A DNA stretch of 64,000 nt, taken from contig NZ_FXWK01000002.1 of assembly GCF_900177655.1 (NCBI RefSeq), forward strand, positions 1-64,000. Reading direction: 5' to 3'. Source of the DNA: Devosia lucknowensis. GTDB lineage: Bacteria > Pseudomonadota > Alphaproteobacteria > Rhizobiales > Devosiaceae. Shown here one piece after another: positions 20,848 through 39,801 of this stretch (positions are counted from its first letter, which is position 1; every line of letters starts with the position of its first letter). The position numbers and the translations under genes were made by a program. The notes under the pieces are model-generated. The model did no database searches, was not told the origin of the DNA, and saw only the letters and a list, made by a program, of their open reading frames with translations.

Positions 20848-22710
20848 GTGGAAGCCATTGAGTCGCTCGACCTGTTCTCGCCCCACCGCCACGAGCGGCC
20901 GAGCCCGCTCGCGGTTCTGCGCGATATTTTCGGCCATCGGGAATTCCGTGGCCAGCAGGCCGACGTGATCGACCATGTGGCCGGGGGCGGCGACGCCGTC
21001 GTGCTGTTCCCGACCGGCGCAGGCAAGTCGATGTGCTACCAGATTCCGGCCATCTGCCGGTCCGGCGTCGGCATCGTCATTTCGCCGCTCATCGCCCTGA
21101 TGCGCGATCAGGTGGAGGCGCTGAAGCAGGCGGGCGTCGCGGCGGCGGCGCTCAATTCATCGCTGAGCGCCGAGGAAAGCGCCGAGGTGCGGCGCAAGCT
21201 GCGGCGAGGCGAGCTCGATCTTCTCTATGTTGCGCCCGAACGCGTGGCGACGCCAGGCTTTGCCAACATGCTGGCCGATGCCGACATCGCGCTTTTCGCC
21301 ATCGACGAGGCGCATTGCGTGAGCCAGTGGGGCCACGACTTCCGGCCCGAATATCGCGAGCTCATCCACCTCGTCGAGCTTTTCCCCGGCGTGCCGCGCA
21401 TCGCGCTGACGGCGACGGCGGACCCGACGACGCGCGAAGACATCATCGAACGCCTGGGGCTCGAACAGGCCGAGGTGTTCACCACCAGTTTCGACCGACC
21501 CAACATTTCGTATTCGATCGTCGAGCGCGACAAGCCGCGCGAACAATTGCTGGACTTTCTCGCCGGCCACAAGGGCGAGAGCGGCATCGTCTATTGCCTC
21601 TCGCGCGCAAAGGTCGAGGACGTCGCAGACTGGCTCTCGAACAAGGGCATCCGCGCCCTGCCCTATCACGCCGGCATGAGCGCCGAGCTGCGCAGCGCCA
21701 ACCAGGACGCCTTTCTCAAGGAAGAAGGCCTCTGCCTCGTGGCCACCGTGGCTTTCGGCATGGGGATCGACAAGCCTGATGTGCGCTACGTGGCGCATAT
21801 GGACCTTCCCGCGTCCATCGAGGCCTATTACCAGGAAACGGGACGCGCCGGGCGCGACGGCCAACCGGCCGATGCGTGGATGAGCTACGGCATGGCCGAC
21901 GTGGTGCAGCGCCGCCGGATGATCGACGAGGGCAATGCCCCGGACGAGATCAAGCGGCTCGAGCACGGCAAGCTCAATGCCCTGCTGGGGGTGTGCGAAA
22001 CCGCGTCGTGCCGACGCCAAGCCATACTCAACCATTTTGGCGAGGCGCATGCGGGCGGTTGCGGCAATTGCGACACCTGCCGGGCGCCAGTGGAAAGCTG
22101 GGACGGGACGGAGGCGGCCATCAAGGCGATGGCGGCCATCTATCGTACCGGCATGCGCTTCGGCGCCGCCCACATCATCGACGTGCTGGTGGGCAAGGAA
22201 ACCGAGAAGGTCACCCGCTTCGGGCACCAGCACCAGAAGGTTTTCGGCCAGGGGCAGGAGCTGGATGCCAAGGCCTGGCAATCGGTAATCCGGCAACTGA
22301 CGGCCATGGGCCTCATCGTGGTCGATCACGCCAATCATGGCGCATTGACGCTGAGCGCGGCCGCGCATGACGTGTTCAAGCGCGAACGCAGCGTGACCCT
22401 GCGGAAGGACCGCCCCAAAAAATCCGTGGAGGTGCGCCGGTCGCTGGCCCGATCGGTGGACGTGCCCGACCATGCCAAGCCACTGTTCGAAGCGCTGCGC
22501 TCCGAGCGCCTGCGGCTGGCCAAGGCGCAGGGCGTGCCGCCCTATGTGATCTTCCACGACGCCACGCTCAAGGCCATGGCCCTGGCGCAGCCGACCCATC
22601 CGCACGACATGCTCAACCTGCCCGGCGTGGGACAGGGGAAACTGGACCGGTATGGGGATGCGTTTCTGGCGGTGGTGCGGCGGCATCTGGTGGATGGTGA
22701 AAACACCTAA
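20848..22710 (+). CDS. ATP-dependent DNA helicase RecQ (3' end altered by transposon)
   Basis: A 620-residue RecQ helicase. Motif I is TGAGKS (near residue 58), motif II is DEAH at 153-156, and the RecQ loop [14 protein letters not shown] follows. Motif VI is ETGRAGRDG. The zinc-binding segment ends CGNCDTC, and a winged-helix and HRDC domain (about 530-605) close the protein. The start is GTG at 20848 after CAGGGG. The last codons come from the transposon: the original end ...RHLVESA-stop is now ...[13 protein letters not shown], because the element inserted inside the final codons. HRDC is intact, so function is probably retained. recQ is the apparent attachment site. Confidence 0.95.
22690..22694. 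repeat. Target-site duplication, left copy (GTGGA)
   Basis: The 5 bp immediately left of the transposon end. The identical GTGGA lies immediately right of the other end (47050-47054). A 5-bp duplication is characteristic of Tn7-family transposition. Confidence 0.88.
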
Positions 22711-22738
22711 GTTGTGCTCCTGAAACCAATGTTCTGCA
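22695..22738 (+). repeat. Left transposon end with two TnsB-like sites
   Basis: It begins TGGTGA. Site L0 is CCTAAGTTGTGCT (22706-22718) and contains the new recQ stop codon; site L1 is CCAATGTTCTGCA (22726-22738). Both match the right-end sites in inverted orientation. Confidence 0.85.
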
Positions 22739-22752
22739 CTCAACACCGGTGT

Positions 22753-23037
22753 CTACACATTGTTCATTCGTTCGACCGGGCCGGGCGGGACTGAGGCGAG
22801 CCGGCTACGGGGCGTTTGGGCTTGGTTCTTGGCACCGCCGAGACTGATCATTTCGGTCTCAAGACGGCTGAGATCATTAGCATCAATTCCTTCAGCCTTC
22901 ATACGATGGTGGAGCTCGACGAGGCTGAGGCGGCGTTTGATGATCTCGTCTACTGCTTCATTTCGGATTCGGCGCCGGACTAACCAGCCGATGGCCGCTA
23001 AAAGGGATCCGGCCATGATTACCAATATCTGCAGCAT
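22753..23037 (-). CDS. Small membrane protein with C-terminal helical region (94 aa)
   Basis: A 94-residue protein: an N-terminal membrane helix (MLQILVIMAGSLLAAIGWLV), an Arg-rich stop-transfer stretch, a charged helical segment (about 25-65) and a Pro/Arg-containing tail. AGGAGG lies about 7 bp before the ATG, a strong ribosome-binding site. It is the first cargo gene inside the left end, reading toward recQ. I do not recognise the family. It is divergent from the lanthipeptide genes. The Arg-rich helical segment could bind nucleic acid or a partner protein. Confidence 0.65.
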   Translation of the reverse strand: MLQILVIMAGSLLAAIGWLVRRRIRNEAVDEIIKRRLSLVELHHRMKAEGIDANDLSRLETEMISLGGAKNQAQTPRSRLASVPPGPVERMNNV

Positions 23038-23356
23038 CTACTTCCTCCTGGTGAGAAAGATAGTAAGCGGTTGGCAGGTGCGGGGGATAAGTCGCGTCAC
23101 TGATGACGTTCAACCAGATCCAAGAGAGAATGGAGGTCCTGCCGGTTTGGGAGTCGTGGCGGCAGTTACCGACAGTCATGGCAAGAATCCCTGAAAGGAG
23201 ACGCTCCACGTGCTTTCAGCTTTGGATACGTTTGATAGGAGTGTGCTGATGCAACATAACAACAGATACTGTTTGACTTTGTATCACTGCCAGGTTTTGT
23301 TGCTTGGCTAAGAGGATCAAGCCTCGGCGGTTGCAAATAGAGATCGGGAGGTATCT
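23038..23356 (+). other. Upstream region of the lanthipeptide operon, with a possible 20-codon ORF
   Basis: This 319-bp AT-richer region should hold the promoter of the lanthipeptide genes. One small ORF, 23249-23311 (20 codons, MQHNNRYCLTLYHCQVLLLG), has AGGAG 7 bp before its ATG and two Cys. Whether it is translated is unknown; an upstream GTG at 23210 in the same frame would make it 33 codons. No SOS box is seen here. Confidence 0.35.
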
Positions 23357-23815
23357 TTGGAGCATGCTGGAAACCATGTTGGCAGACTCGAGCTTTCTAC
23401 AGCTCTAGTCATCCGCGCTTGGCGTGACGCCGACTTCCTTGCCTCTTTGAGCGAGGAGGAACGGGCTTCCCTTCCTGCACACCCGGTCGGCTGGCTGCAA
23501 AGCAGCCCTGACACGACCGGCACTTTTGAACGCCAAGCCGGTACTGTCGCCACCACCTGCTCAACGGTTGCTACGACGTGCTCCACCGTTTCTACCAAGT
23601 GCTCCACCGTTGCGACGGCATGCTCCACGGTCGCGACGACCTGTTCCACGGTGGCGACAAGCTGCTCGACCGTGTCGACGTCTTGCAGCAGCGTGTCTAC
23701 CAGCTGTTCTACCGTTGCCACCACATGCAGCACTGTTTCGACGAAGTGCAGCACGGTAGCCACCAGTTGCTCCACTGTGGCAGCAGACTGTCGCCCCCGT
23801 GAGCGTAGACGCTGA
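23357..23815 (+). CDS. Repeat lanthipeptide precursor (LanA, mersacidin/lichenicidin-type leader)
   Basis: A 152-residue precursor for a class II lanthipeptide. Residues 15-48 match the leader style of the mersacidin/lichenicidin family (VIRAWRDADFLASLSEEE, then LPAHPVG). The core is twelve consecutive 7-residue units, consensus S-T-V-[AS]-T-x-C, with Cys at 68, 75 and every seventh residue to 145, then a basic tail RPRERRR. It contains almost only Ser, Thr, Val, Ala and Cys. Leader removal after QAG (residue 62) is plausible. The start is TTG at 23357 with GGGAGG 5 bp upstream; the frame has no in-frame ATG. The synthetase gene follows 18 bp later in the same frame. Product and activity are unknown. 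Confidence 0.85.
   Translation: MEHAGNHVGRLELSTALVIRAWRDADFLASLSEEERASLPAHPVGWLQSSPDTTGTFERQAGTVATTCSTVATTCSTVSTKCSTVATACSTVATTCSTVATSCSTVSTSCSSVSTSCSTVATTCSTVSTKCSTVATSCSTVAADCRPRERRR
23540..23791 (+). repeat. Twelve 21-bp repeats encoding the lanthipeptide core
   Basis: Twelve units of 21 bp, one per Cys-containing heptad. The units differ at many third positions. The Ser that opens each unit is encoded by TCA, TCC, TCG, TCT or AGC, so protein sequence is conserved better than DNA. This shows that the plus-strand reading is the selected one. Confidence 0.9.
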
Positions 23816-23833
23816 GCGAAGTCGAGCCTGCAG

Positions 23834-26800
23834 TTGGATACTCGATCCATCGTCCGCTGGCCGGCAGCGCTCGGCATCGGTGAACGACGAACGCTGCTCC
23901 GCAACGTGGCCGAGGAATGTTTGCCGGGCAGCGACCAAACGGGCCGCGGCTTTCCGCCCGGTTTCTTGGAGACGGAAGATTGTGCGATTGCCGAGGTTCC
24001 TTTCCTGCCGAATACCGCCGAGGTCGTCCGAGTTCTCAAACCAACAAATGCCCCGACCTGGGCCAGTCCTGGCTGGGTCCTCAACCGATCGACCGGAGGA
24101 TTGATAAAGAGCATAGTCCTATCGTTCCGCCGTCAAGTGTCGGCAGATCTTGATCAATTTATCGGCGCGAACCTTTCGGCAAAGAAGGTCTCGGCTTCAC
24201 TCGCTAGGGCGCTTGGCGACGAACTCGATGAACTGTTGTTCAGACCCCTCACGCTGGAAAAGCGGATAGCGGACCTTGAGGGACGAGGAACGGATTGGGC
24301 GCACGCCGATTTCCGCGACCACCTAGAAGATCGACGTTCTCAGCGAGAATTCTTCGAGAACTATCCGGCGCTCCTCCGACAAGTGCATTTGCGTTGCGAC
24401 CGCTGGTTGGCGGCAAGCTTGGAGATGGTCCGACGGCTCCAAAACGACCGGGGATGCATCGAAGAGGAATTCGGGATAGCCGCCGCGGATCGCCTCGTTG
24501 CGGCACGCGCCACGTCAGGCGACCCGCATTCTGGCGGGCGGAGGGTGACTCGCCTTCGCTTCGCTAGTGGAGCGGAATTAATTTACAAACCACGACCGCT
24601 CGGCTCAACGAAAGTGTTTCAAGACCTTATCGGGGCCATGAACCGAGCTGGCTTGAAAGACTCGTTGCGGACCGTATGTGTCATAAATCGCACGAGTTAC
24701 GGCTGGATGGAGCATGTTCGTTGCAACTCCTGCCGAAGCGACGCTGCGGTATCCAGATACTTCCGGCGCGCAGGTTCTCTTCTCGCGGCCCTACATGTCA
24801 TGGGCGGCAGCGACTGCCACTTCGAGAATCTCATAGCCGCCGGGGAACAGCCCATCGTGGTCGATCTGGAGACCCTGCTGGCACCTCAATTCAAAGCCGC
24901 TGACCGATCCGCATCCGCGGCAGCTGAAACCGTTAGAGATAGCTCCGTGCTCGGCGTCGGCATGCTGCCCTCTATCGATGGAAAGGAGCTTGGCGCCTTG
25001 GCCGCCGCTCCGGGACAGAATACCCAACTCATGACCCTCGCGCTGGTGGACGCGGGTCTGCCCGAAGCGAGAGTCGAACGTGTCGCCTGGCAACTCGGTG
25101 ACGTGGCCAGCCTGCCCCGCCGAGGGACGGTCCGAGTACCAGCCATCGATTATGTGGCTGAGATCGAAGCTGGATATTCGGATGGCTATTCCGCGCTCCA
25201 AAGGATCCGTCAACCATTGGCGGCTGCGGGAGGTATCCTGGATCAGCTCGGAGGACAGGCTGTCCGGTTGGTGCTGAGACCGACCGCTTACTACGCAGAT
25301 ATGCTTCGAGAGAGCACCCATCCATCCGCGCTCCACGACGCCATTCAAGCCGACCGTATTCTTGCAGCATCATGGACCAATGCTCCGGATGCACTTCGGC
25401 TCGCTGCCGCGCCCTTCGAATTGCGACAACTGCGCGCCGCGGACATACCCTACTTCAGCGTTCGGGGAGCCAGTTCATCTATCGGATTCGGCCCAACACG
25501 CTTTAGGTTCGCGCGCTCCGGAAGAAACGCCGCTGCTGAGCGGCTAAAGGGCATGGGTGATAACGATCTTGAACGTCAGCTTGGTCTCATCCGGGCAACA
25601 TTCGGCATCCAGCCCAGCACCATCATCGACGTAGTACAGCGATCGCGCGCGGTGGATGAAGCTAAGCTAATCGGTGAACAACTGATTTCGGAGGCGATCA
25701 CGACCTCCGATGCAGCCAGTTGGTTGCAACTCTCACCAGGGGACGATGGAGCAAGCAACGCCATCGGACCAGTTCAGGGAAGTCTTTACGACGGGCTTCT
25801 CGGCATCGCTTTGTTCCTAGGCCAACTGGATGCAGCAACAGGGGACGGTCGCTTTGCGACGCTGGCCCACATGGCGCTTCGTGAAACCCGAAGCCGTACA
25901 TTCGAACAGTCAGGGTTGGGGGTCTTTGATGGGTTGGGCGGCGTGGTATATTCACTGCCGCATCTCGCCCGCCTGTTGGGCGACGACAACCTTATCGAAC
26001 AGGCCGAGCAGGCAGCGGAAGAAATCACGCTGCGCTTGGATGATACCAGGGTCACCGCCGACCTAGTTTCGGGTACGGCCGGTTTGGTGTTGGCTGGACT
26101 GTCGCTGCACGCAGTCCGCAGGTCTTCCGCAAGCGAGCGTCTCCTCCAAGCAACGGCAAGGCATCTCCGTAACGCTATCGAGGATATGGAGAATACACAG
26201 GTCGGTTCGAAACTCCCATTCTCGCGTGGCGCAGCGCATGGCTGGAGCGGTGTTATGCTCGCCTCGGCGCGCCTTTCATCGGTGCTGCCGGAGTTAATGC
26301 CTCAAGAGCTTGTCCACGCGGTAATATCGACCGAACTCAATATTACGTCTAGTGACCGCTGGACTGATCCCGATGACGATTTACATCGTGATCAAGCAAC
26401 ATGGTGTCACGGCGCTCCAGGGATCGCCCTTTGCCGGATTGCGGCAGCTCAAGTGAACAACTCCGAGGATTTAGTTGATGGTGCGCTCAAGGCTCTCGTC
26501 GCCACCGAACTCCTCCAATTGGACCATATGCAGGAACCGGGACTTTGCCACGGTAGTATGGGAGTCACAAACATCGGCATTGCCGCTAGCGCGATGAACT
26601 TGGGCGGGAGACCTCAAGTAGACTGCATGGTCTGGCAGCGATTTTCGTCCAATGCGCCCCATCTATTTAGGCCTGGCCTTATGACAGGCTTGGCAGGAAT
26701 AGGCTACGGGTTGCTAAGGATGGCGGATCCATCGATCCCAGACGTGCTTACGTTGGATCCTCCTTCATACGGTAAGCGATACGTACGCTTAGACGTATGA
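23834..26800 (+). CDS. Class II lanthipeptide synthetase LanM
   Basis: A 988-residue bifunctional enzyme. The N-terminal dehydratase domain (DUF4135, about 100-600) activates Ser/Thr; it shows YKPRPLGSTKVFQ, the GGSDCHFEN motif with D327 and DLETLL with D344. The C-terminal LanC-like cyclase (about 660-980) has AAHGWSG, WCHG with C858, and LCHG with C905-H906. The spacing of the Cys pair (47) is as in LanC zinc sites, so both halves look active. The start is TTG (23834) or CTG (23828), without a strong ribosome-binding site. It lies in the precursor's frame, one TGA and 18 bp beyond it, so translational coupling is likely. No lanT, protease or immunity gene is adjacent. Confidence 0.93.
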   Translation: MDTRSIVRWPAALGIGERRTLLRNVAEECLPGSDQTGRGFPPGFLETEDCAIAEVPFLPNTAEVVRVLKPTNAPTWASPGWVLNRSTGGLIKSIVLSFRRQVSADLDQFIGANLSAKKVSASLARALGDELDELLFRPLTLEKRIADLEGRGTDWAHADFRDHLEDRRSQREFFENYPALLRQVHLRCDRWLAASLEMVRRLQNDRGCIEEEFGIAAADRLVAARATSGDPHSGGRRVTRLRFASGAELIYKPRPLGSTKVFQDLIGAMNRAGLKDSLRTVCVINRTSYGWMEHVRCNSCRSDAAVSRYFRRAGSLLAALHVMGGSDCHFENLIAAGEQPIVVDLETLLAPQFKAADRSASAAAETVRDSSVLGVGMLPSIDGKELGALAAAPGQNTQLMTLALVDAGLPEARVERVAWQLGDVASLPRRGTVRVPAIDYVAEIEAGYSDGYSALQRIRQPLAAAGGILDQLGGQAVRLVLRPTAYYADMLRESTHPSALHDAIQADRILAASWTNAPDALRLAAAPFELRQLRAADIPYFSVRGASSSIGFGPTRFRFARSGRNAAAERLKGMGDNDLERQLGLIRATFGIQPSTIIDVVQRSRAVDEAKLIGEQLISEAITTSDAASWLQLSPGDDGASNAIGPVQGSLYDGLLGIALFLGQLDAATGDGRFATLAHMALRETRSRTFEQSGLGVFDGLGGVVYSLPHLARLLGDDNLIEQAEQAAEEITLRLDDTRVTADLVSGTAGLVLAGLSLHAVRRSSASERLLQATARHLRNAIEDMENTQVGSKLPFSRGAAHGWSGVMLASARLSSVLPELMPQELVHAVISTELNITSSDRWTDPDDDLHRDQATWCHGAPGIALCRIAAAQVNNSEDLVDGALKALVATELLQLDHMQEPGLCHGSMGVTNIGIAASAMNLGGRPQVDCMVWQRFSSNAPHLFRPGLMTGLAGIGYGLLRMADPSIPDVLTLDPPSYGKRYVRLDV

Positions 26801-26941
26801 TTTGCCATTCGGGCCAAATCGGACCTGGGTCGACACCAAGATTTTATGGGTCGATGCCCGTTGCCTCGAACGGCGATCATTCAGCCGTTGGGCTATCCAG
26901 TGCGCGCGACCTACAGGTTCGCCCCGACGCCGATGAAAACA

Positions 26942-26956
26942 GTTCTTGTTTTGTTC
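26942..26956 (+). promoter_or_regulatory. SOS box (LexA operator) before umuDC
   Basis: GTTC-TTGTTTT-GTTC, an exact match to the alphaproteobacterial LexA box GTTC-N7-GTTC, lies 44 bp before the umuD start. umuDC should therefore be repressed by LexA and induced by DNA damage. Confidence 0.85.
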
Positions 26957-26999
26957 GGTAACGTCGACGATCCTTTCAGGAATCGACGCCGGAGAAGAC

Positions 27000-27452
27000 A
27001 TGCCCCTCAACGCCGCCATCGCCGACCACCGCATGCCGGTACCGCTCTCCTCGCTGTTCCAGCTGAGCGTTCCCCTTGTCGGTCGGACCGTCCACGCAGG
27101 TTTCCCGTCGCCGGCGGACGACTTCATCGAGGACATGATCGATCTGAACCAGGTGCTGGTCCAGAACCCGACCGCAACCTTCCTGTGGCGGGTGGTCGGG
27201 GACTGCATGGTGGACGTCAAGATATTCCCCGGGGACGTGGTGATCGTCGACCGTTCGATTTCGCCGAAACACCGGTCGATCGTGTTGGCGATTGTCGACG
27301 GTGAACCCACCCTCAAGCGCCTGAACCGGCGCGGCGGCACCTTCGTACTGCAGAACGAGAACGCCAAGCTGCCGCCGTTCTTGGTATCGGATGGCACCGA
27401 AGTGTCGGTCTGGGGCGTGGTGACTGCCACCATCCGCGATCTCAATAAGTGA
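27000..27452 (+). CDS. UmuD-like S24 peptidase with Cys in place of catalytic Ser
   Basis: A 150-residue UmuD homologue, the accessory subunit of DNA polymerase V. Alignment by eye with E. coli UmuD places the cleavage site at A33-G34 (HAGFPSPA versus CGFPSPA). The nucleophile position is GDC69M instead of GDSM, and the general-base Lys is K106 (PTLKRLN). So Ser60 is replaced by Cys (codon TGC at 27204) while Lys is kept. RecA-stimulated self-cleavage may be altered. GGAGAAG precedes the ATG at 27000; an upstream TTG frame is not used because it crosses the SOS box. The stop overlaps the umuC start (GTGA). Confidence 0.88.
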
Positions 27453-28711
27453 CCGCCTTCGCCCTGGTCGACGGCAACAGCTTCTACTGCTCTTGCGAGA
27501 GGGTGTTCGACCCCAAGCTCGAAAAGCGTCCTGTCATCGTCCTCAGCAACAACGATGGCTGCGCCGTAGCCCGCACCAACGAGGCCAAGGCGCTTGGGAT
27601 CCGGATGGGCCATCCGTATTTCCAGATCAAGGACCTGTGCCGGCGGGAGGGCGTGGTGGCCCTGTCCTCCAACTACGCGCTCTACGGCGACATGAGCCGG
27701 CGCCTCAACCAAATCTACGACCGCTTCAGCCCGGACGTGGAGATATATTCCATCGACGAGAGCTTCATCGACGTCAGCCGACTTGAGGTGAAGGACCGCA
27801 CCGCTTGGGCGAAGGACCTGCGTTCCACGGTCAAGCAGTGGTCGGGAATTCCCACCTGCGTCGGCATCGGCCCGACCAAGACCTTAGCCAAGCTCGCCAA
27901 CAAGGCCGCCAAGAAGTTGCCCGAAGGCGTCCTCGACCTGAGTGAACCCACGGAGCGGGCCCGCCTCATGGCCGACTTCCCAATCGGCGACGTCTGGGGC
28001 ATCGGACCCGCCAACCAGGCCAAGCTGGCTGCCATGGGCATCCAGTTCGCAGGCCAGGTGCGGGACCTCGAGCCGCGGCAGGCTCGGCAACTGATGACCG
28101 TCGTCGGCGAGCGCCTGGTGCACGAACTCAACGGGCGCTCCTGCATGCCGCTGGAGACGGTGGCTCCCGTGCGTCAGGGCTGCGCCGTAACCCGCTCTTT
28201 CGGCCAACGCGTGACCCGCAAGCAGGAGATGGAGCAGGCGGTCGCTGGCTACGCCACCCGGCTGGGCGAGAAGCTGCGGCGCCATGGCCTCGCAACCGAC
28301 CAGGTCACCGTCTTCATGCACACCAGTCGTTTCGACGATGACGAGCCGCAGCGGAGCGTCTCCATGTCGGTGCAGCTGCCGGAAGCGACCAACGACACCA
28401 TGGCACTGCTTAAGGCCAGCCGAAGCGCGGTCGACCAACTCTGGAAGTCCGGATACCGCTACGCCAAGGCCGGCATCATTACCCAGGATCTGGTGACGCC
28501 GACAGGAACGCAGAAGGCTTTGTTCGACGGCCTCGACCATGATCGGGCCACCAAGGTCATGCAGGCCCTAGACGCCGCCAACAAGCGTTGGGGACGTGCA
28601 ACGGTGTTCCCGGCGGCGATGGGGATAAGGCGGGAGACGTTCTCGACCAAGTTCGAGATGCGGACGCCCAGGTACACGACGCGATGGGACGAACTGCCGG
28701 AATGCCGGTGA
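27449..28711 (+). CDS. DNA polymerase V subunit UmuC
   Basis: A 420-residue Y-family translesion polymerase, the normal UmuC length. Motifs are [19 protein letters not shown] (first metal Asp and steric-gate region), [17 protein letters not shown] and [10 protein letters not shown] (catalytic Asp-Glu). Helix-hairpin-helix and little-finger regions follow ([25 protein letters not shown]). The catalytic acidic residues are intact. The GTG start overlaps the umuD stop by 4 bp, so the pair is translationally coupled and under the SOS box. As transposon cargo, it would add inducible mutagenic repair to the host. Confidence 0.93.
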
Positions 28712-28771
28712 GGATCGATTGCCATCGTAGGACGAAATGAACCGGAAACGCTTACTTGCTATGGTGATGGC

Positions 28772-29296
28772 ATGAGCATCATCCGTTTCGACCCAAAGCG
28801 GCGTCCATATAAGCCGCGGACCTCCGGCAAGCCCGACGCGATAACCCCGGCGCTCGCCGTTGCGGCGCTGGTGAGCGTCTGTACGCTCGGTTGGATTGCA
28901 GCCGACACGTTCCTGCCCGGTGGGGGACAAGCGGTCGTCGCCTCCGAGATGCGGGTTCAGTTCCGCATGTGCGGATCCGGACAGCGCCACACATGCGTGG
29001 TCGATGGCGACACCATCTGGCTGGACGGCATGAACCTGAGGCTGCAGGCATACGACACGCCGGAGCCCTACAACGACATCTGCGGCGGCGAGGCAGAGAA
29101 GGCCCTGGCGCACCGCGCGAGCTCCCGCCTGCTCGAACTGTTGAACGGCAACAGCTTCACGGTGGAGACTTTCGGTACCGATCGCTACGACCGGACGCTC
29201 GCGACGATCAGGATCAACGGCACCGATGTCGGTGACATCCTCATCTCCGAAGGGCTGGCCCGCCGTTGGCCAGATGGCCACGAGTTCTGGTGCTGA
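28772..29296 (+). CDS. Membrane-anchored thermonuclease (SNase-like) protein
   Basis: A 174-residue protein. Residues 1-25 are basic and Pro-rich; a membrane helix follows (ITPALAVAALVSVCTLGWIA). Residues 70-174 form a staphylococcal-nuclease-like OB fold: VVDGDTIWLDGMNLRLQAYDTPE (metal Asp and the R-L..YD.PE motif), FGTDRYDRTLATI (Asp-Arg) and LISEGLARRW. The catalytic Arg/Glu set is not fully clear: an Arg precedes LQAYDTPE and another is in DRYDR. It probably cleaves nucleic acid outside the membrane. It overlaps the next small ORF by 1 bp (TGATG). Confidence 0.8.
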   Translation: MSIIRFDPKRRPYKPRTSGKPDAITPALAVAALVSVCTLGWIAADTFLPGGGQAVVASEMRVQFRMCGSGQRHTCVVDGDTIWLDGMNLRLQAYDTPEPYNDICGGEAEKALAHRASSRLLELLNGNSFTVETFGTDRYDRTLATIRINGTDVGDILISEGLARRWPDGHEFWC

Positions 29297-29550
29297 TGCG
29301 GGTTCCTGCCGTCGACCCCAAGCGCGACAAGCTTATCCGCCATTTCGAGAAGAAGCTCGCTTACTTCCAAGGCATCCCTTCGCATCGACGGGAAGACGAG
29401 GCCGCCGACGAGGGCGAAGCCACGTGCCGATCGATGCTGGCCGGGCTCAGTGCCTCGAGAAGCAAGGACGGGAACGACGCATCGGATATTGTGTCGCTGG
29501 AACAGTGGCTCGATGAGATCGAAAGAGATAATGGCAGCGACAAGGGATGA
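29296..29550 (+). CDS. Small charged protein of unknown function (84 aa)
   Basis: An 84-residue soluble, highly charged protein (MRVPAVDPKRDKLIRHFEKK, later DDASDIVSLEQWLDEIERD-like acidic helix). Its ATG overlaps the stop of the nuclease gene (TGATG), so it is probably translated by coupling. The acidic C-terminal half and its position suggest it may be a partner or inhibitor of the nuclease, but that is only inference. I do not recognise the family. The 287 bp after it hold no gene I can support. Confidence 0.5.
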   Translation: MRVPAVDPKRDKLIRHFEKKLAYFQGIPSHRREDEAADEGEATCRSMLAGLSASRSKDGNDASDIVSLEQWLDEIERDNGSDKG

Positions 29551-29837
29551 AACGGTCGCATCCGCTGCCACGCTAAAACCAACTGGTAGTCGGTTCAAGA
29601 TGATTAGTGTCGAGAGTGGATGTGATGCCTTTATCTTGAGCATCTCGGCCTTTCTGGTTCACGAAAGTTCGCTTATGGACTACTTTAGAGATCTTCGTAG
29701 AATACATCATTCTTGATTAAATCGCTGATTTATAAGTGGTATTAGGCCAACATGGCGCCTCAGAGCAGTTGACTGTATCTAGATAAACCTGCCCCCTCGT
29801 CGCATTTTTGGGTCCACTGATGCCGAAAGGACCCCCG

Positions 29838-29984
29838 ATGGAAACGGTGAATGAAATCATAGAGACGCTCGGTGACCTCCCGTCGTCTAGCCTCGCACTT
29901 CTTGTCGTCTTGGCAGGCTTTGGCCTCGCCGCGTGGGCGATCTATGTCGTCCATGAGCACTCGAAGCAGGGGCCGAAGCGATAA
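29838..29984 (+). CDS. Small single-span membrane protein (48 aa)
   Basis: A 48-residue protein: an acidic amphipathic N-terminus (METVNEIIETLGDLP), a membrane helix (about 18-40, LALLVVLAGFGLAAWAIYVV), and a short basic tail. AAAGGA lies about 9 bp before its ATG. Its stop TAA is separated by one base from the ATG of the winged-helix gene, so the two are almost certainly co-translated. A membrane peptide coupled to a DNA-binding protein could be a toxin- or sensor-like pair; nothing in the sequence decides this. Confidence 0.6.
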   Translation: METVNEIIETLGDLPSSSLALLVVLAGFGLAAWAIYVVHEHSKQGPKR

Positions 29985-29985
29985 G

Positions 29986-30678
29986 ATGGCCATGCTGAAC
30001 TGGGTGCGTTTTCCGACGCACTGGATCGAAGCCGAGGAACACCACCTCAGAGATATCGATTGGGCGGAGGATGGTATCGATGGGCTTGCGGGTTTGATGA
30101 CGTTAATCGTCATCGTGCAGCATGCCGATCAGGAGACGGGCGAGGCCAAGGTCACCTACGATCTGCTGCAGAAGGGAACCGGCCTCAGCCGATCAACGAT
30201 CGCGCGCGGCCTTGGCTTTATCGAGGGTAAACTTGTGAAGAAGCTCTCGCAAAGCCGATATAGTATCGTCGGTTACGATGCGGGCAGCGGATGGGCAATG
30301 CTACCGGCAAAGCCCTTGTACACCGGCAATGGCGAGATCAGCTTTTTTCAAGAGTTCCGTTGCCGGAAGGCCGTCGAGCTCAACGCGCTGAAGCTTTATC
30401 TGCTCTTCGTGTCTCGGCGTGATCGTAACGACAACATGGCACATGTCACCTACGACATGATCGAGGACTACACCGGTATCTATCGCGACGACATCAAGCC
30501 GGCGCTAAGCTTTCTCGCTGCCAACGGCATGGTCCACATTGAGCATGTGCCGAGCAAGAAGAGCAAGTTCGGAGTCGCCAATGCATACCGCATCACCCGT
30601 CTCGAAGCCTACCGTCATATGGGGACCACCGGACGGCAGCACGACGCTGGCGGATACTTCAACGGTCCGAACGAATAG
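29986..30678 (+). CDS. Protein with two winged-helix-like domains
   Basis: A 230-residue protein. Two similar modules are visible: about 15-85 (LMTLIVIVQHADQETGEAKV, then LQKGTGLSRSTIARGLGFIEGKLV) and about 120-200 (LNALKLYLLFVSRRDRNDNM, then YDMIEDYTGIYRDDIKPALSFL). Each looks like a helix-turn-helix followed by a wing. This layout resembles plasmid or phage replication initiators and some DnaD-like proteins, but I cannot assign the family. It follows the 48-residue membrane protein by one base. It may regulate cargo or have a role in element replication. Confidence 0.6.
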   Translation: MAMLNWVRFPTHWIEAEEHHLRDIDWAEDGIDGLAGLMTLIVIVQHADQETGEAKVTYDLLQKGTGLSRSTIARGLGFIEGKLVKKLSQSRYSIVGYDAGSGWAMLPAKPLYTGNGEISFFQEFRCRKAVELNALKLYLLFVSRRDRNDNMAHVTYDMIEDYTGIYRDDIKPALSFLAANGMVHIEHVPSKKSKFGVANAYRITRLEAYRHMGTTGRQHDAGGYFNGPNE

Positions 30679-30831
30679 ACTCTTGGTAGGACCCTGGGAC
30701 GACGCTTAGTGTGCAGACATCCCTGCCCGCATGCCGCTGGTCGATTGCTCTTCCACAATCACACTAGGCGCACTGCCTCGATAGAGTCCCTCGCGACAGC
30801 CACCATATTTGCCCTTCACGGGGAACAGTTA

Positions 30832-32319
30832 TCATTCCGGGACTGAGCTGCTCATTTCACCCTCATCCGCGGTTGTGCGTGCCAAGTCTTCGCGAATTCT
30901 ACGTTCGAGTGCGTCTTCCTTGACGTACCGGTGCAAAGAGTGCCCGACATATTCCGATGCTCGCTCGACTACACGGGGATCGAAACTGATGAAACCCAGA
31001 GGCACCGGTAGGCCGGCCTTGGACCCAATGGGAGCGTGGATTGACGCCGCTACCAAGACACCCGGTACTATCAGCAACTCGAGCGTTTGAGGGAATGCTG
31101 GCGCATCGCTTTTGCAGACCTGGGCGAACGCTTTTTTGACGTGAGCATCGGGCCAACCTGACACCAAGCCAACAGTGGTGGCCGGACGGTCACTATTGTT
31201 ATCTGCTCCATTTCGCGACGCCATCATCCGCAGCAATTCGGGAAGTGTTTTCGTCGCGCCCCAATGCTTCACGATGGGGATCAACCACAGCAAGGTTGAC
31301 GGTCGTGACCTTGACCGAAGTGCTATGCTGTAAGCCTCGGTAAGTTTGCGCACGTTGTCGCGGGTGAAAAGAGAACCTACGAAGGCGATAGTCTGACGGT
31401 TCGATCGCACTTCACCAACACGGTTGAAGGTTTCGCGATAGTACTGATCGACGGCTAGACCGCTCTTGCGGACGAATTCCTTGAGGAACTCGGGAGCTAG
31501 CGATATGAGCACCTCATAAGCTTCCCGATCTCCACTTCTCTGGGTGACCGAGAGGTCATCAACGAAAGCTGCCACGGCGTCCAACACCTCGGGGCGGTCT
31601 TCCTGTTCTACCTCGTTGCGCCATTCGCTTAGATCAGCCACACCTGCCCAAGGACGGAGCCCAGTGGACTTGATGGTCAACTTCACTGAGCTCGAAAAGC
31701 GATCTCCCGGGCTCACGTGATCAATCGAGTAGAGCGATCGCTTGTCGAACGACGCCTTGTCCCTTCTGCTGGCAATCTCCGAATACGATTTCCGGAAGGC
31801 CGAGTAGATGTTTCCAGCTGCGGCGCTGGCACGCTCAGGCTGTAGGAGTGGCAACTCTGGAAGAGCCCTCGAGAAGTCATCGAGGCCTCGAGGATGTTCA
31901 TAGGCAAGGGAGATGAGGTCGAAACCGACATTCTCACGCCGAGCTTCCACATCGAATATCTTCGGTTCGTCCGATCCTTCCAAAAAAAGGCTCATACCCG
32001 AAAGGGTAATCCAAAGCCTACCTTCTCGCCGCTCGACGTATCCCAGCCCCGCGACCTCGGCGAGAACGAACGACATGTCCCTCAAACCGAAGCCGAAGAA
32101 CAAGGCAGCCTCGTTCTCGTCGATCCCATCGACCGACTTCACCAATCGCAACAAGAACTCGGCGGTGAGGGACACCCGACCGAGAACAGCTACCTTGTGA
32201 TCGACATCGAACCGGCGGCAAGGAAGAAGTACATCGTAGCTCGCTAGTTCGAGATCCTTATCTTCCTCTGGTTTCAATAGCCCCGTCAGAGACAGGATCG
32301 GTCTTGTTTGCGTGATCAT
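30832..32319 (-). CDS. Partner protein of the kinase-helicase (putative defence)
   Basis: A 495-residue protein without a catalytic motif I recognise. Residues 50-115 resemble a winged helix (LTAEFLLRLVKSVDGIDENE, then GLGYVERREGRLWITLSG). The remainder is mixed alpha/beta; a C-terminal part (TLLWLIPIVKHWGATKTL) has a His and Lys but not a clear phospholipase-D HKD motif. It starts at 32319, overlapping the stop of the kinase-helicase gene by 4 bp (ATGA), so the two form a strict two-gene operon and probably one system. It could be a DNA- or target-recognising subunit, or a divergent effector. Confidence 0.55.
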   Translation of the reverse strand: MITQTRPILSLTGLLKPEEDKDLELASYDVLLPCRRFDVDHKVAVLGRVSLTAEFLLRLVKSVDGIDENEAALFFGFGLRDMSFVLAEVAGLGYVERREGRLWITLSGMSLFLEGSDEPKIFDVEARRENVGFDLISLAYEHPRGLDDFSRALPELPLLQPERASAAAGNIYSAFRKSYSEIASRRDKASFDKRSLYSIDHVSPGDRFSSSVKLTIKSTGLRPWAGVADLSEWRNEVEQEDRPEVLDAVAAFVDDLSVTQRSGDREAYEVLISLAPEFLKEFVRKSGLAVDQYYRETFNRVGEVRSNRQTIAFVGSLFTRDNVRKLTEAYSIALRSRSRPSTLLWLIPIVKHWGATKTLPELLRMMASRNGADNNSDRPATTVGLVSGWPDAHVKKAFAQVCKSDAPAFPQTLELLIVPGVLVAASIHAPIGSKAGLPVPLGFISFDPRVVERASEYVGHSLHRYVKEDALERRIREDLARTTADEGEMSSSVPE

Positions 32320-35300
32320 GCCGTGGCCACCGTTTCCTTGACCGCATCTCGCCGGTCTCCAACGTCCCCCAGCAGCGCGGACGCCGATATCACCTGAGCA
32401 TCTCCGGCGCTGAAGCGCTCCTCTACTGCTTCCGAGAGCCGCTGCATTGGACTACCGACTTGCCAACGTGATTTCGCGCCAACAATAATCAAGCGATCCA
32501 TGGCGCGACTGACAGCTACGTTGATGCGGTTCGGTCGCTGCAAAAAGCCTGGCTTTATGGTGGCGAGCCCTCGCTCCGCTTGGCCCGAGACATTGTTGCG
32601 CACAAGCGAAAGGACAACGATCGGGTTTTCCTTGCCTTGGTAACTATCTACGGTATCGATCTTGATAGAGCGACGGAATGCTTCAGGTAGGTTAGCCGCC
32701 TGGATCTTCTTACGGATGAGATCCCGTTGCGCTGCGTACATACAGATCACGCCTATCACGTGGGCATGCTTCGTTTGTTCCGCGACCCATTCTGTGAAGG
32801 AAGCGGTTGCCGACCACTTCTTGAGCAGTGCAACTATACTATCGGCCTCCGCCGGATTTATCCTGCTGGTACCGGTGCTTTCGGTACGTTCTTCGCCGGA
32901 AGCACCTAATGAGTCTGTGGTTATCCAGGTGAGCGGCTGCTCCAAGCCCTCCGGCAATATCTCCGGATCTATCTCAGGCGTGGTCCGTCCAGCTTCGAGC
33001 ATCCCTTCATAGAAGGTATCCGAAACAACCTGCCCGATAGGAGGAAGCATGCGGTATTGGGTCTTGAGCCTGGCGCCTGCCGACTTGCCATAACCATTCT
33101 CGAACAGGCGCTCGAAATCGCTTTGCACAACCGCGAGTTCCGAGGTGCCGAGTTCGCTCGCGACTTTCGAAACGACGGTGGCGGGGTGCTGGGGCTCCAA
33201 CTGCGCATGGTCGCCAACCAACACCACCCACCGCCCTGACTGCATCGGGACCGCTAACTCACTTGCGGTACAACGTGCAGCCTCGTCGATGATGACGAGA
33301 TCGAAGGGGGTCGTGGTAAGGCCTAACGACGTGCGACCAAGTCCGACGCATGTCCCGGCAACGATCTGCCGAGTACCGGCCAGGAATGCTTCGTAGCCTC
33401 GCTGCTGCGTAGATACGCTACCGACGAAGTCTTTGGCTAAGTTGAACACGGACCGCATCCTGCCGATCCTCTCGGGCGCTGGACGCTCACTTGCTGTCAG
33501 ACGGTCAATTACAGCTCGCAAGGTGTCGTCTAGCACCTCCAGTGGATCCTCCTCAAACACCAGCACGCCTGCTCCAGCTACGCTCTCGCCAAGAGCCTCC
33601 AGCGTGTTCGACAAGCTGTTTATCCGTTCATCTTCCGGCTCTGGCTGCTCCCGTAGCTTTACGATTCTCTCGGCGACGGGTCGCATGTGAACCTCGATGT
33701 CGATCATCGCTTCCACTACAGGCAATGGAATTCCAAGAGCCCTACCTGCTAACCTCATTCGGTCACGAAACTCGGCACCGAAGCGATCCTTGTAGAGCTG
33801 TTCCAATCGGTCCGTATGAAATGGCATCAGCCGCCCGGAGACCACGCCTTCGTTACCTACGCGGAGAATGCTGGGTTGCTCATCCTGGTTGGCGAAAAGC
33901 CTTAGCACCGCTTCGGCGGCATTGTTGACGGCCTCATGCGATTGGCTGGCAAGAAGGATGTTTTTTGCCATGCCACGCGTGAGCGCGAAATGCGTGAGGG
34001 CGGCGATGAAGAGGGTCTTCCCTGTCCCGGGAGGACCCTGAAGGGCGCCTAAGGGGCGCACGGCGACAATCTTTCTGAAAGCCTCTCTCTGATCCTGGTT
34101 TAATCCGTAGCGAGCAAGATCTTCATCGCTCACCGCAAGATCCAGAGATGCCGGACGATATTCGGTCTTGGGCTCGAACAAAGTTGGGATCGATTTTATA
34201 CGAGCCTGCCCACTCAGTGTCCGACCGATTGCAGATTCCCTACGGCGGAGGCTTTGAATTTCGAAGTGGCTTATGAAACGCAGGCGCTGCTCTTCAGTCA
34301 CGAGAGCTGCATTGCCGGTCGTACTCCAGTCCGCCGCGTCGATGAAAACCCGATCGGGCTTCGACCTGGCGATATCGAGTTCACCTATACGTTGCCAGGC
34401 GCCCTTGCGATCGAGTCGCTCGACACCAACGCGATCGTTTCGGTTAAAATCGAATGTTCCGCTAGTCAGCTCGAAAGGCACGATATGGCGCTTAAGATCG
34501 CGATTATACCCGCTGTCGGCCGCTGCCACGCCATCGGTGGTAAGATCACTCTCTGCCGTGATGAGTGACTGCCATAACCGCCGTATATCAACGGTTGGTA
34601 GCTTGGGGATTGCTGCTGCGGCTTGGTTGTCATTGAACGCATCATAAGCCGTGTCGTCGAAGGTAGGCTCTGGCTGAGCTTCGGGTATCTCTTCTCCTGC
34701 AGCGGTATCGACCCCCTTGGTAGCCTGGTTACCCCAATTCGACAGGAAGGCCTCATCAGCGAGGAGAAAGTCGATATCGGTAAAGTCACTGGCCACCGAG
34801 CTGGATATTTCTATCTCAGCCTCGAATTGCATGAACTCAAACCTCGCCAGTCGACTTATCTGCTTCTGATCGATCGTGCACCGCCGCGCGCGGACAGGAC
34901 GCATTCGATCATCGAGGAAGACCTCCAGTTCTTCGCACGCGCCACGTATGAAAAGGCTCGATCGATTCACAGCTCCCTTTCGTACATAGAACTGGCCCTC
35001 GTCCGACAGCAGGGGACCTGGGGATATTCCAGGCACCTGAATCTTGACCTGGCGTGCCGATGCTTGTTCGAGCTGTGGAAGCAAAGCTAGTTCGAGCGCC
35101 TCCATCAACGGAAGAAGCGTGCCGTTTTCAGGCACGGTGTCTCGGCAACTATCGAGGGCAGCTGAGATCTTGATTGCGACAGATGCATCAAGACCCGCCT
35201 CGGCTAACACCTCTTCCGTGATTTTTGTGACCGCGAAGCGGTCTCGCTCAAGTCGACCACCGGATGCAGGCGAGTAAGCCGTGTTAGTTGGCTCACCGTC

Positions 35301-37343: not shown

Positions 37344-37807
37344 AGAGATGACGTGCCCAGAAAAGACGCACGGCTACAAATTAACCCTACTGGCTTCAGG
37401 CTCTCTCAGGCTGGTTGACATCTTTGACCTTGTTCTCTATCTGTTCACGCATGATCACCACTCAAACCAAACGCGGACCTGTTATCTCGGCGCCTTCGGG
37501 CAGCCGCGCGACCGCGTTCGTCTTCCGGCGGTCTACCTCGCAAGCATAGGCTTGCGGTTCATCGGGAAGACGCCATCGAGTACCTTCCCGTGTTCTATCC
37601 CCTCACCACCGACATCGACGCGACGATCGAACCCGACAAGCGAAAGCCTCGCTCGCCGGGCGCCTCGCCGCGTCTGCTGCCTTTCTGCATGGCTGGCTCG
37701 ATGGCCGGCTTCCGAAAACATCTTCCGGTGACCCCATGAACAACCACAACCCGACGCGCCCGATGCGGCGCCATATGAACCGGCCAGGCACCGCGGCATA
37801 GATGCCC
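37344..37807. other. Divergent intergenic region, no convincing gene
   Basis: This 464-bp stretch separates the kinase-helicase gene (minus) from the AAA-protease gene (plus) and should hold both promoters. The plus frame ending at 37739 has reasonable composition over its last 60 codons (containing EYLPVFYPLTTDIDATIEPD) but no clear start; it could be a gene remnant. A 21-codon ORF at about 37737-37802 is not supported. Confidence 0.35.
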
Positions 37808-37831
37808 GTGTCCTCGCCGGCGCGAGGACAC
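37808..37831 (+). promoter_or_regulatory. Perfect inverted repeat over the AAA-protease ribosome-binding site
   Basis: GTGTCCTCGC-CGGC-GCGAGGACAC: 10-bp perfect arms with a 4-bp centre, ending 2 bp before the ATG at 37834. The right arm contains the ribosome-binding site GAGGA. It could be a translation-blocking hairpin or an operator for a repressor. Confidence 0.6.
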
Positions 37832-37833
37832 CT

Positions 37834-39801
37834 ATGACTTCGAGACAAAACGACTTCGATCCCGATGACGACTTCGACGAGGAAGCGTCCTACCTTATCG
37901 AGGTGACACCCAAGGACCAGCAGTTCGGACTTGTGGCCGCGAGCAACGCCCTGCCCCGCCTGATGATCGAGCAGGCGACGACGGCAGGGGAGCTCGGCGT
38001 GTTCCGCAAGGCCCCCGGCATCGTCGCCGTCGTGGAGGCGCCGGGCGCCGCCTGGGTCAAGCCGCTGCTGCAGGCCGCCAAGACCATGGCGCACTGGGAC
38101 CTGCACCTATCCGAATCCGCCAAGCAGAAGGCCGGGGCGGATAACAGCCGCGACCAGGCCATCCATGCCGTCGACAGGGGCCACCGCATCCTGGGGGTGT
38201 CGCAGAACCCCTCGGGATACCTCCCGGAGGGCTTGGCCGGATCGGCGGACATGACGGTGAAGGTCAACCTCCCCGACGACACGGTCATCAGGCGGACCAT
38301 CCGCGCGGCCACGGGCCGCTATCCGAAGACCATGCCGAAGGATATCGCGCGGGGACTTTCCTATACCGACATCTGCCTGGCCATCCGCAAGGGCAGCAAG
38401 CCCGCCGAGTGCGTCACCCGCCTCATCGCCGCGGGACAGGCCGCCTCTCGTCAGGACGACGATCTCTCCCAGGTCCCGCCGCTGGCCAGCCTCTACGGCT
38501 ACGGCGAGGCCATGGTGTGGGCGCGCGGCCTCGTCGCCGATCTCGATGCGTGGCGTCGCGGGGAGATCGACTTCTCCGCCCTGCAGCGCACCGTCGTGCT
38601 CGCCTCCGAGCCCGGCATGGGCAAGTCCACCTTCGTCCGCAGCCTCGCCAGGGCAGCCGGGGTTCCCTTGGTCGCGACGTCGGTGAGTACCTGGTTCTCC
38701 AACAGCACCGGATACCTCGACGGGGTCATCAAGCAGATCGACCAAGTTTTCCTGGGCGCCGCGGCCAACGCGCCGGCGATCGTCTTCCTCGACGAGATCG
38801 AAAGTATCCCGGATCGCGCCCAACTCACCGCCCGCGCCGCGGAATGGTGGATGCCCGTGGTCGGGCATATGCTGCTTACCCTCGACAGCGCCAGTTCCGG
38901 CGTCTCCTCGAGGCTGATCGTCATCGGCGCCACCAACTTTCCCGAAAAGCTCGACAGCGCCCTGACAAGGCCCGGCAGGTTGAGCCGGATCATCTGGATC
39001 GGCAGGCCCGATAAGGCCGCGTTGGCCGGCATCCTTCGCCAGCACCTCGGCGACGATCTTGCCGGCGTGGACCTGTCCGAGGTGGCTGCCCTGGGGTGGG
39101 GCGCCAGCGGCGCCGACGTCACCGAATGGGTGAAGCTGGCGAGGAGCGTCGCCCGCAAGGCGGAACGGCCCATGGCGATCGCCGACCTACTCGCCCAGGT
39201 TGCCCCTCCGGAGGATCGTCCTGACGATCTGGCGCTTCGCATCGCCGCTCACGAGGCCGGGCATGCGGTGGTCTTGCAGGTGCTTGGCCTTTCCGAAGTC
39301 ACCGCGGTCTCCAGCATCGGCGCCGGGCCCTCGGGCGGCAGGACGGTGATCGGTGCGATGCCGGACGTCATGTCCAGGGAACAGGTCGACGGTTACGTGA
39401 CCTTCCTGCTGGCGGGACGCTGTGCCGAGGAGGTGATCGTCGGCAGCGCCAGCAGCGGATCCGGCGGCTCCACCAAGAGCGACCTGGCACACGCGACCAA
39501 CCTCCTGGCCAGCGCCTATGCGAGTCTGGGCATGGGCAACGAACTGCTGTACCGGGGCACGCCCGAGGAGGTGGGGCACATGCTCGCCATCAACGACCGG
39601 CTCGCCAAGGCCGTCGAGGCGGAGCTGCAGCGCCTCTATGCCGATGCCAAGGCCATCGTCACCGAATATCGGGCGGCGGTTCAGGCGGTCGCCCTTGCCT
39701 TGATACGCGAGCGCTACATCGACGGCGACAGGTTCCGCGAGATCTTCCTCCGCCACTCGCCAGGATCGCGGACGATCGAAATGGATGGCCGCGATGGATG
39801 A
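37834..39801 (+). CDS. Soluble AAA ATPase-M41 metalloprotease (FtsH-like)
   Basis: A 655-residue protein with an unrecognised N-terminal domain (1-240). The AAA module (about 250-430) has EPGMGKST near residue 265 (Walker A), IVFLDEIES (Walker B) and ALTRPGRLSR (arginine finger region). The C-terminal M41 peptidase has H473-E-A-G-H477, with a later acidic zinc ligand in the STKSDLAHAT region. Unlike true FtsH it has no membrane helix, so it should be cytosolic. It likely unfolds and degrades specific proteins. It lies between cargo and the tns operon, and the next ORF overlaps its stop codon. A 24-bp palindrome covers its ribosome-binding site. Confidence 0.85.
   Translation: MTSRQNDFDPDDDFDEEASYLIEVTPKDQQFGLVAASNALPRLMIEQATTAGELGVFRKAPGIVAVVEAPGAAWVKPLLQAAKTMAHWDLHLSESAKQKAGADNSRDQAIHAVDRGHRILGVSQNPSGYLPEGLAGSADMTVKVNLPDDTVIRRTIRAATGRYPKTMPKDIARGLSYTDICLAIRKGSKPAECVTRLIAAGQAASRQDDDLSQVPPLASLYGYGEAMVWARGLVADLDAWRRGEIDFSALQRTVVLASEPGMGKSTFVRSLARAAGVPLVATSVSTWFSNSTGYLDGVIKQIDQVFLGAAANAPAIVFLDEIESIPDRAQLTARAAEWWMPVVGHMLLTLDSASSGVSSRLIVIGATNFPEKLDSALTRPGRLSRIIWIGRPDKAALAGILRQHLGDDLAGVDLSEVAALGWGASGADVTEWVKLARSVARKAERPMAIADLLAQVAPPEDRPDDLALRIAAHEAGHAVVLQVLGLSEVTAVSSIGAGPSGGRTVIGAMPDVMSREQVDGYVTFLLAGRCAEEVIVGSASSGSGGSTKSDLAHATNLLASAYASLGMGNELLYRGTPEEVGHMLAINDRLAKAVEAELQRLYADAKAIVTEYRAAVQAVALALIRERYIDGDRFREIFLRHSPGSRTIEMDGRDG

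What the first reader, a model, noticed from the sequence alone, without database searches (positions are those of the whole stretch)
23357..26800. A lanthipeptide precursor built from twelve perfect Cys heptads, with its own LanM
The sequence shows a mersacidin/lichenicidin-style leader followed by a core of twelve S-T-V-[AS]-T-x-C units with Cys every seven residues, then a full-length LanM with intact dehydratase and cyclase motifs. Known class II cores are short and irregular; an 83-residue, strictly periodic core of Ser/Thr/Val/Ala/Cys could form up to twelve regularly spaced rings and a rod- or solenoid-like product. Function may be structural or surface-binding rather than antibiotic. 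Product, ring pattern and role are inference.
Basis: partly seen in the sequence, partly recalled or inferred. Interest (0 to 1): 0.95.

Follow-up and report, generated by a model that had tools for sequence, protein, structure and literature searches.

The report
Twelve-ring lanthipeptide on a transposon
A mobile DNA element in this bacterium carries a gene for a peptide built of twelve near-identical seven-residue units, next to an enzyme that is predicted to close each unit into a sulfur-bridged ring, which would exceed the seven rings reported as the known maximum and likely give a long, stiff, positively charged chain whose role is unknown.

Summary
A 152-aa precursor (23357-23815) has a mersacidin/lichenicidin-family leader (TIGR03898, above cut-off) and twelve Cys exactly seven apart, 18 bp before an intact LanM (TIGR03897). 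It is a real family: 19 database relatives carry the array, 13 of them with exactly twelve units. In 209 of 209 units a Thr/Ser sits five residues before the Cys. The first unit starts with Gly and a basic tail follows the last Cys, so Thr(-5) to Cys is the one pairing that serves every Cys: twelve consecutive, non-overlapping methyllanthionine rings (inferred). A 2024 survey gives seven bridges as the known maximum. New here: the gene pair is cargo of a 24,355-bp TniB/TniQ (Tn7-like) transposon next to recQ, with a 5-bp target duplication and an empty site in 6 of 6 congeners compared. The element also carries a Mokosh anti-phage system. No C39 (LanT-type) peptidase was found in the genome, so release and export are unexplained. 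Ring chemistry, shape and function are untested, and the pairing of array and LanM was seen at this locus only. Verdict: a new variant of class II lanthipeptide.

The parts
23346..23351 (+). GGGAGG, likely ribosome-binding site of the precursor
   Evidence: read from sequence
23357..23542 (+). leader, 62 aa, mersacidin/lichenicidin family, ending Ala-Gly
   Evidence: TIGR03898 40.4 bits (cut-off 23.5), aa 18-45; G62 invariant in alignment of 17; leader ends AG in 18 of 20 precursors, FG in 2
23543..23791 (+). core array: twelve units, (T/S)-V-(A/S)-x-x-C joined by one Ser, 83 aa
23792..23812 (+). basic tail RPRERRR; basic tails, Arg-rich in 14, also end 15 of 15 complete homologues
23834..26800 (+). 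LanM, class II lanthipeptide synthetase, 988 aa; start aligned with M1 of the 85% relative
24362..25462 (+). dehydratase domain DUF4135 (aa 177-543)
   Evidence: D230, H232, K252, D327, H329, N332, D344, R478, T484 align with CylM residues tested in PMC4550811
25769..26743 (+). LanC-like cyclase domain (aa 646-970), likely zinc residues C858, C905, H906
   Evidence: C905 and H906 align with CylM zinc ligands, C858 placed through the LicM2 alignment
22695..47049 (.). Tn7-like (TniB/TniQ) transposon, 24,355 bp, that carries the gene pair
   Evidence: target duplication GTGGA at 22690-22694 and 47050-47054, matching terminal sequences; empty site in 6 of 6 congeners
41455..43779 (+). likely TniA/TnsB-type transposase (rve_3 below cut-off, 21.0 against 26.5 bits)
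43776..44837 (+). TniB
   Evidence: PF05621 39.3 bits (cut-off 22.4)
44818..46785 (+). TniQ
   Evidence: PF06527 58.3 bits (cut-off 27)
30832..37343 (-). Mokosh anti-phage genes mkoB (30832-32319) and mkoA (32316-37343)
   Evidence: PADLOC MkoB 380 bits, MkoA 1748 bits
26946..28711 (+). umuD-like (26946-27452) and umuC-like (27449-28711) cargo directly behind lanM

Best explanation
This is a class II lanthipeptide gene pair, carried by a 24.4-kb Tn7-like transposon, whose LanM is predicted to turn a precursor of twelve seven-residue Cys units into a chain of twelve likely identical methyllanthionine rings ending in an arginine-rich tail. Shown: leader family, array, LanM with its active-site residues, conservation in relatives, transposon ends and empty sites. 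Inferred mechanism: LanM binds the leader and dehydrates the Thr (or Ser) five residues before each Cys. The cyclase domain then adds each Cys to that residue, giving twelve consecutive i to i+5 rings separated by single Ser or dehydroalanine residues. An unidentified protease cuts after Ala-Gly, so the product starts with the first ring. The product would be a long, stiff chain, mostly Val, Ala and thioether, with a net charge of about +5. I commit, with low confidence (about 0.35 for this step), to a membrane- or envelope-binding peptide used in defence or competition as transposon cargo.
For: Leader TIGR03898 and LanM TIGR03897 over their cut-offs. Twelve catalytic and zinc residues are invariant in 10 of 10 aligned LanMs; eleven align directly with CylM, C858 through LicM2. 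Best solved relative of the LanM profile is LicM2, 404 bits. 20 related proteins found; 19 carry the array (P0111 does not): 13 with twelve units, 2 with ten, 4 truncated or broken. Thr/Ser at -5 in 209 of 209 units; residue -6 is Gly in 20 of 20 first units and Ser in 187 of 189 others, so Ser(-6) cannot serve the first Cys; residue -1 is not Ser/Thr in 72 of 209; the tail behind the last Cys has no Ser/Thr in the window and in 10 of 15 complete homologues. Residue -1 keeps its identity by unit number (0 of 5000 shuffles; kinship not controlled). Units differ mainly at third codon positions: 88, 73 and 251 differences at positions 1, 2, 3 over 385 codon comparisons, so the array looks old and held at protein level.
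Against: No chemistry was measured. No C39 peptidase was found in the genome, so processing and export lack an enzyme. Four window units also have Ser at -3, and the published nearest-Ser/Thr rule puts 4 of 12 rings there rather than at -5. AlphaFold2 of the unmodified precursor folds the core as two long helices (block pLDDT mostly 76-83, but pTM 0.40 and five models at mean pLDDT 55.6-72.5); this is about the unmodified chain. The contigs of the nearest LanMs were not seen, so the pairing rests on this one locus. In the genus only this genome of 75 has the LanM.
Confidence: 0.72

Rival explanations
1. The peptide is modified, but with fewer or irregular rings: some Cys pair with Ser at -3 or with Ser(-6), others stay free or form disulfides, because LanM acts loosely on a long repetitive substrate.
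For: 46 Ser/Thr in the core against 12 Cys; the published nearest-residue rule gives 8 rings of size i+5 and 4 of i+3 for the window, and 8 to 11 of 12 at i+5 in the eight homologues given to it (of 13 with twelve units).
Against: Residue -3 is Ala in 172 of 209 units while -5 is Thr/Ser in 209 of 209, so a uniform ring is the simpler reading.
Confidence: 0.2
2. Orphan cargo: the gene pair is expressed but the product is not matured or exported in this host because the transposon carries no LanT or dedicated protease; the trait works only in other hosts.
For: No PF03412 match in the genome while 8 of 14 control genomes match; only this genome of 75 in the genus has the LanM, and it lies on a transposon.
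Against: Both reading frames are intact; unclustered protease genes are reported for lanthipeptides (PMC8960859, start of abstract in a search listing).
Confidence: 0.25
3. The Cys array is an unmodified metal- or thiol-binding or coiled protein and LanM acts on something else.
For: AlphaFold2 folds the unmodified core as long helices; seven-residue repeats suit coiled coils.
Against: Lanthipeptide leader of the right family directly upstream of a LanM; core made almost wholly of Thr, Ser, Cys, Val, Ala; the one LANC_like domain found in the genome is this one.
Confidence: 0.06
4. The real gene is the antisense ORF 23317-24114 and the plus-strand repeat is its shadow.
For: The antisense frame is open for 265 codons and reads as a heptad repeat; in a chance pattern hit elsewhere (L003) a regular repeat reads on the other strand.
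Against: Plus-strand leader matches TIGR03898; 19 database proteins keep the plus-strand leader and array, 15 also the tail. The antisense phase aligns third positions with third positions and the core lacks the codons that would close it, so its openness is expected (reasoned from the sequence).
Confidence: 0.02

Closest known systems
Mersacidin/lichenicidin-family class II lanthipeptides (TIGR03898 precursors, LicM2/CylM-type LanM)
   Same: leader above the NCBIfam cut-off; LanM closest in solved structures to LicM2 (6ST5) and CylM (5DZT)
   Different: core is an 83-residue, twelve-unit array with Arg-rich tail; no LanT seen in the element, no C39 peptidase found in the genome; no TxTxEC lipid II motif
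Geobacillin I and elgicin (seven thioether bridges, the most in known lanthipeptides per PMC11251773 section 3.6)
   Same: many thioether rings in one peptide
   Different: twelve predicted, uniform, non-overlapping rings here against seven, with three overlaps in geobacillin I; that survey's own predicted maximum is eight
P0111, an ordinary short precursor with the same leader type (88 aa)
   Same: leader IIRAWKDEEYRNSLSEAQRAELPDNPAG and one TVAASCS stretch in its core
   Different: one such stretch, no array; suggests the array could have grown from a single ring unit (inference)
Tn7-like TniA/B/Q transposons
   Same: TniB, TniQ, 5-bp target duplication, matching ends
   Different: carries a lanthipeptide gene pair and sits at the recQ end; whether either has been described was not looked up

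Membership tests
Class II lanthipeptide | LanM with fused dehydratase (DUF4135) and LanC-like domains | tested here: met
   TIGR03897 620.7 bits
Class II lanthipeptide | catalytic and zinc residues of LanM present | tested here: met
   11 residues matched to CylM, C858 placed through LicM2
Class II lanthipeptide | precursor with leader and Ser/Thr/Cys core beside lanM | tested here: met
Class II lanthipeptide | lanthionine or methyllanthionine in the product | not testable with these tools
   needs mass spectrometry
Class II lanthipeptide | C39-type LanT for cleavage and export (usual, not strictly defining) | tested here: not met
   no PF03412 match in the whole genome (99% complete)
Mersacidin/lichenicidin family (TIGR03898) | leader profile above cut-off | tested here: met
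   40.4 bits against 23.5, over positions 2-29 of 44
Mersacidin/lichenicidin family (TIGR03898) | mersacidin lipid II motif TxTxEC in the core (named in PMC7268733, passages) | tested here: not met
   the only Glu of the core lies in the tail
Tn7-like transposon | TniB and TniQ genes | tested here: met
Tn7-like transposon | DDE transposase (TniA/TnsB) | tested here: inconclusive
   rve_3 21.0 bits, below cut-off 26.5
Tn7-like transposon | 5-bp target duplication, matching ends, empty site | tested here: met

The most novel reading that the evidence does not exclude
A ribosomally made poly-thioether: twelve identical methyllanthionine rings in one 90-residue cationic rod. It is made and kept inside the cell (no LanT-type peptidase was found in the genome) as a phage-defence or self-killing effector spread by a defence-carrying transposon. 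To my knowledge (not searched) it would be the first lanthipeptide polymer and the first that is not secreted.
Probability: 0.13. Interest if true: 0.95.

Novelty: new variant of a known kind. Interest (0 to 1): 0.82.

Why it matters
If the rings form as predicted, one enzyme would close twelve equal rings on one chain, beyond the seven bridges reported as known. That would make ring counting, direction and fidelity of LanM directly testable on a uniform substrate. The regular chain would be a gene-encoded scaffold whose length follows the number of units. The transposon setting next to an anti-phage system also gives a way to test whether such peptides serve defence.

Tried and rejected
Genome scan with the single LanM: 10 stretches matched a peptide pattern, none a relative. 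A DNA pattern for three units gave six loci in genome contigs and four in viral contigs. None of these ten has the leader in the matched frame or a LanM (weak chance alignments only); L004 has four in-frame CSTIATP repeats without a leader, and L003, which looked closest, reads as a more regular repeat on the opposite strand. Records of this genome or very near ones may be left out of those collections. LanM alignment against viral contigs: 17 pattern matches, no relative. LanM in plasmids: 189 records, all under 60% identity, the 20 listed 31% or less. LanM in wider samples: 11 of 385 genomes of the class and 12 of 398 of the phylum, own genome included, the other matches 37% identity or less. 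TIGR03898 leaders: own genome only among 61 relatives and among 398 of the phylum; in the class 3 of 385, only the own over the cut-off. Neighbourhoods of 15 distant LanMs: no leader of this type by a simple motif; the Cys-rich filter there was too loose to use. Sigma-70 promoter scan: none found, so the promoter is unknown. AlphaFold2 model too weak for a fold search, which I left out. Antisense ORF considered and rejected (see rivals). An SOS-type GTTC-N7-GTTC (recalled motif) stands before umuD at 26942, but two such sites occur in the window against 2.0 expected, and none lies just before the precursor. Paper searches (some lists capped, 10 of 26 and 15 of 44 shown) listed none that describes such a core by title or abstract start; only the open-licence library was searched.
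Full report
What is there. The plus strand at 23357-23815 encodes a 152-residue protein from a TTG codon with GGGAGG five bases upstream. Residues 18-45 match NCBIfam TIGR03898, mersacidin/lichenicidin family type 2 lantibiotic, at 40.4 bits (cut-off 23.5), over profile positions 2-29 of 44. After Ala-Gly (residues 61-62) come twelve Cys spaced by exactly seven, then RPRERRR. Shuffling the core 20,000 times never gave a constant-spacing run above 7 Cys; the other 881 reading segments of at least 40 aa in the window gave 4 at most. lanM starts 18 bases after the stop; its first residues align with the start of the 85% relative P0017.

The enzyme. LanM matches TIGR03897 at 620.7 bits. Solved relatives by profile are led by LicM2 (404 bits) and CylM (212 bits). 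The CylM residues tested by mutation for phosphorylation and phosphate elimination (Asp347, His349, Asn352, Asp364, Lys274; Asp252, His254, Arg506, Thr512) and its zinc ligands (Cys875, Cys911, His912) are named in passages of PMC4550811. Eleven of the twelve align with a like residue here; Cys875 fell outside the CylM alignment and C858 is placed through LicM2. All twelve are invariant in the 10 aligned LanMs. It is the one LANC_like domain found in the genome. In the protein collection three relatives are 82-85% identical, six are 44-48%, and the remaining 82 of 91 are 35% or less (only the 7994 candidates sharing most words were scored).

The family. Two searches gave 20 related proteins (in one search only 7987 candidates were scored). 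19 carry the array; P0111 has the leader type and one TVAASCS stretch only. Of the 19, 13 have twelve units, 2 have ten, 4 are truncated or broken (P0012, P0015, P0016, P0110). Most come from short contigs whose organisms are not given. Over 20 precursors including the window, units were picked by their Cys, so Cys is 209 of 209 by construction; Thr/Ser at -5 is 209 of 209 (191 Thr, 18 Ser); position -6 is Gly in 20 of 20 first units and Ser in 187 of 189 others; -4 is Val, Ile or Ala in 207 of 209; -3 is Ala in 172 of 209. In the 14 twelve-unit sequences residue -1 follows a code by unit number (mostly T/S, S, S, S, N/H, T, K, T, K, T, S, N/D); summed entropy 11.2 bits against a minimum of 21.1 in 5000 shuffles. 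The window, P0002 and P0109 depart from the common code; without these three it is 4.7 against 18.8. Shared descent alone would also keep such a code, so this shows stable unit identity, not selection by itself. Against the window, leaders are 32-45% identical (19 homologues) and the twelve-unit cores 56-79% (13 homologues), the latter helped by simple composition. Within the window units 2-12 differ mostly at third positions (88, 73, 251). This speaks against a fresh duplication or an assembly artefact.

How it likely works (inference). Every Cys has a Thr/Ser exactly five residues upstream. Ser(-6) cannot be the general donor, because the first unit has Gly there. A donor downstream of the Cys cannot be general, because the tail behind the last Cys has no Ser/Thr in the window and in 10 of 15 complete homologues; five have one. 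The simplest reading is twelve separate Thr(i)-Cys(i+5) rings, with the first ring starting right after the likely Ala-Gly cut. The nearest-residue rule of PMC11251773 (section 3.6 read whole) gives twelve bridges too, but puts 4 of 12 at Ser(-3) in the window. The same section gives seven bridges as the known maximum (geobacillin I, elgicin) and eight as its highest prediction. Without modification AlphaFold2 makes three short leader helices and two long core helices (block pLDDT mostly 76-83 in the core, pTM 0.40, models differing); I do not use this for the modified product.

Where it sits. 39 of 40 congeners sampled have a recQ-region match (40 of 41 with the own genome). I fetched six; in 6 of 6 recQ is followed within 300 bases by the gene that lies at about 47065 in the window. 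The 24,355-bp insertion 22695-47049 is bounded by GTGGA on both sides, has matching ends (TGGTGA.AA.ACC) with further inner copies of an end motif, and carries TniB, TniQ and a likely transposase. Other cargo: umuD and umuC genes, a nuclease-like gene, Mokosh MkoA and MkoB, and an AAA/M41-type protease. G+C of the lanthipeptide pair is 56-61% in 1-kb windows against 63-67% in the left flank; the rest of the insert up to 44 kb is mostly 53-61%, with richer stretches at 27-29.5 and 37.5-40.5 kb. A second, likely single element lies at C2:713-746 kb in a Mg-chelatase (ChlI; ComM-like by recall) gene, with the same left-end gene and umuDC but a phosphoesterase-like gene (below the Pfam cut-offs) where the lanthipeptide pair is. 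In the genus only this genome of 75 has the LanM. PMC12715929 (passages) reports anti-phage systems about five times likelier near class II lanthipeptide clusters than at random, so this company has precedent.

What is missing. No C39 peptidase domain was found in the genome, though the same search rings in 8 of 14 control genomes. Leader removal and export thus need another enzyme, or the peptide stays inside, or the trait is idle in this host. Contigs with the other precursors and LanMs could not be fetched, so the pairing of array and LanM rests on this locus.

Verdict. Confirmed observation; a class II lanthipeptide system by enzyme and leader, with a core architecture that I did not find described in the searches named. 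New variant of a known kind. Chemistry, shape and role remain to be tested.

Noticed in passing
22695-47049: Tn7-like (TniB/TniQ) transposon inserted at the last codons of recQ, with GTGGA target duplication; whether recQ is a known target was not looked up.
   Followed up: partly
30832-37343 (-): Mokosh mkoA/mkoB anti-phage genes as cargo of the same element.
   Followed up: partly
L073 (G000:C2:740000-750000) and G000:C2:713117: A likely second related transposon in a Mg-chelatase (ComM-like) gene, sharing the left-end gene (75%) and umuDC (83%) but with a phosphoesterase-like gene instead of the lanthipeptide pair.
   Followed up: partly
23100-23150 (+): Short stretch (MTFNQIQERMEVLP) like the C-terminus of the phosphoesterase-like protein of L073: likely remnant of a gene replaced by the lanthipeptide pair.
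   Followed up: partly
26942-26956: GTTC-N7-GTTC, a possible SOS box (recalled motif), just before the umuD-like gene; not above chance in the window as a whole.
   Followed up: no
37834-39801 (+): AAA ATPase with M41 (FtsH-type) peptidase domain as transposon cargo, role unknown.
   Followed up: no
G000:C1:1613955: Third TniQ gene in the genome, element not examined.
   Followed up: no
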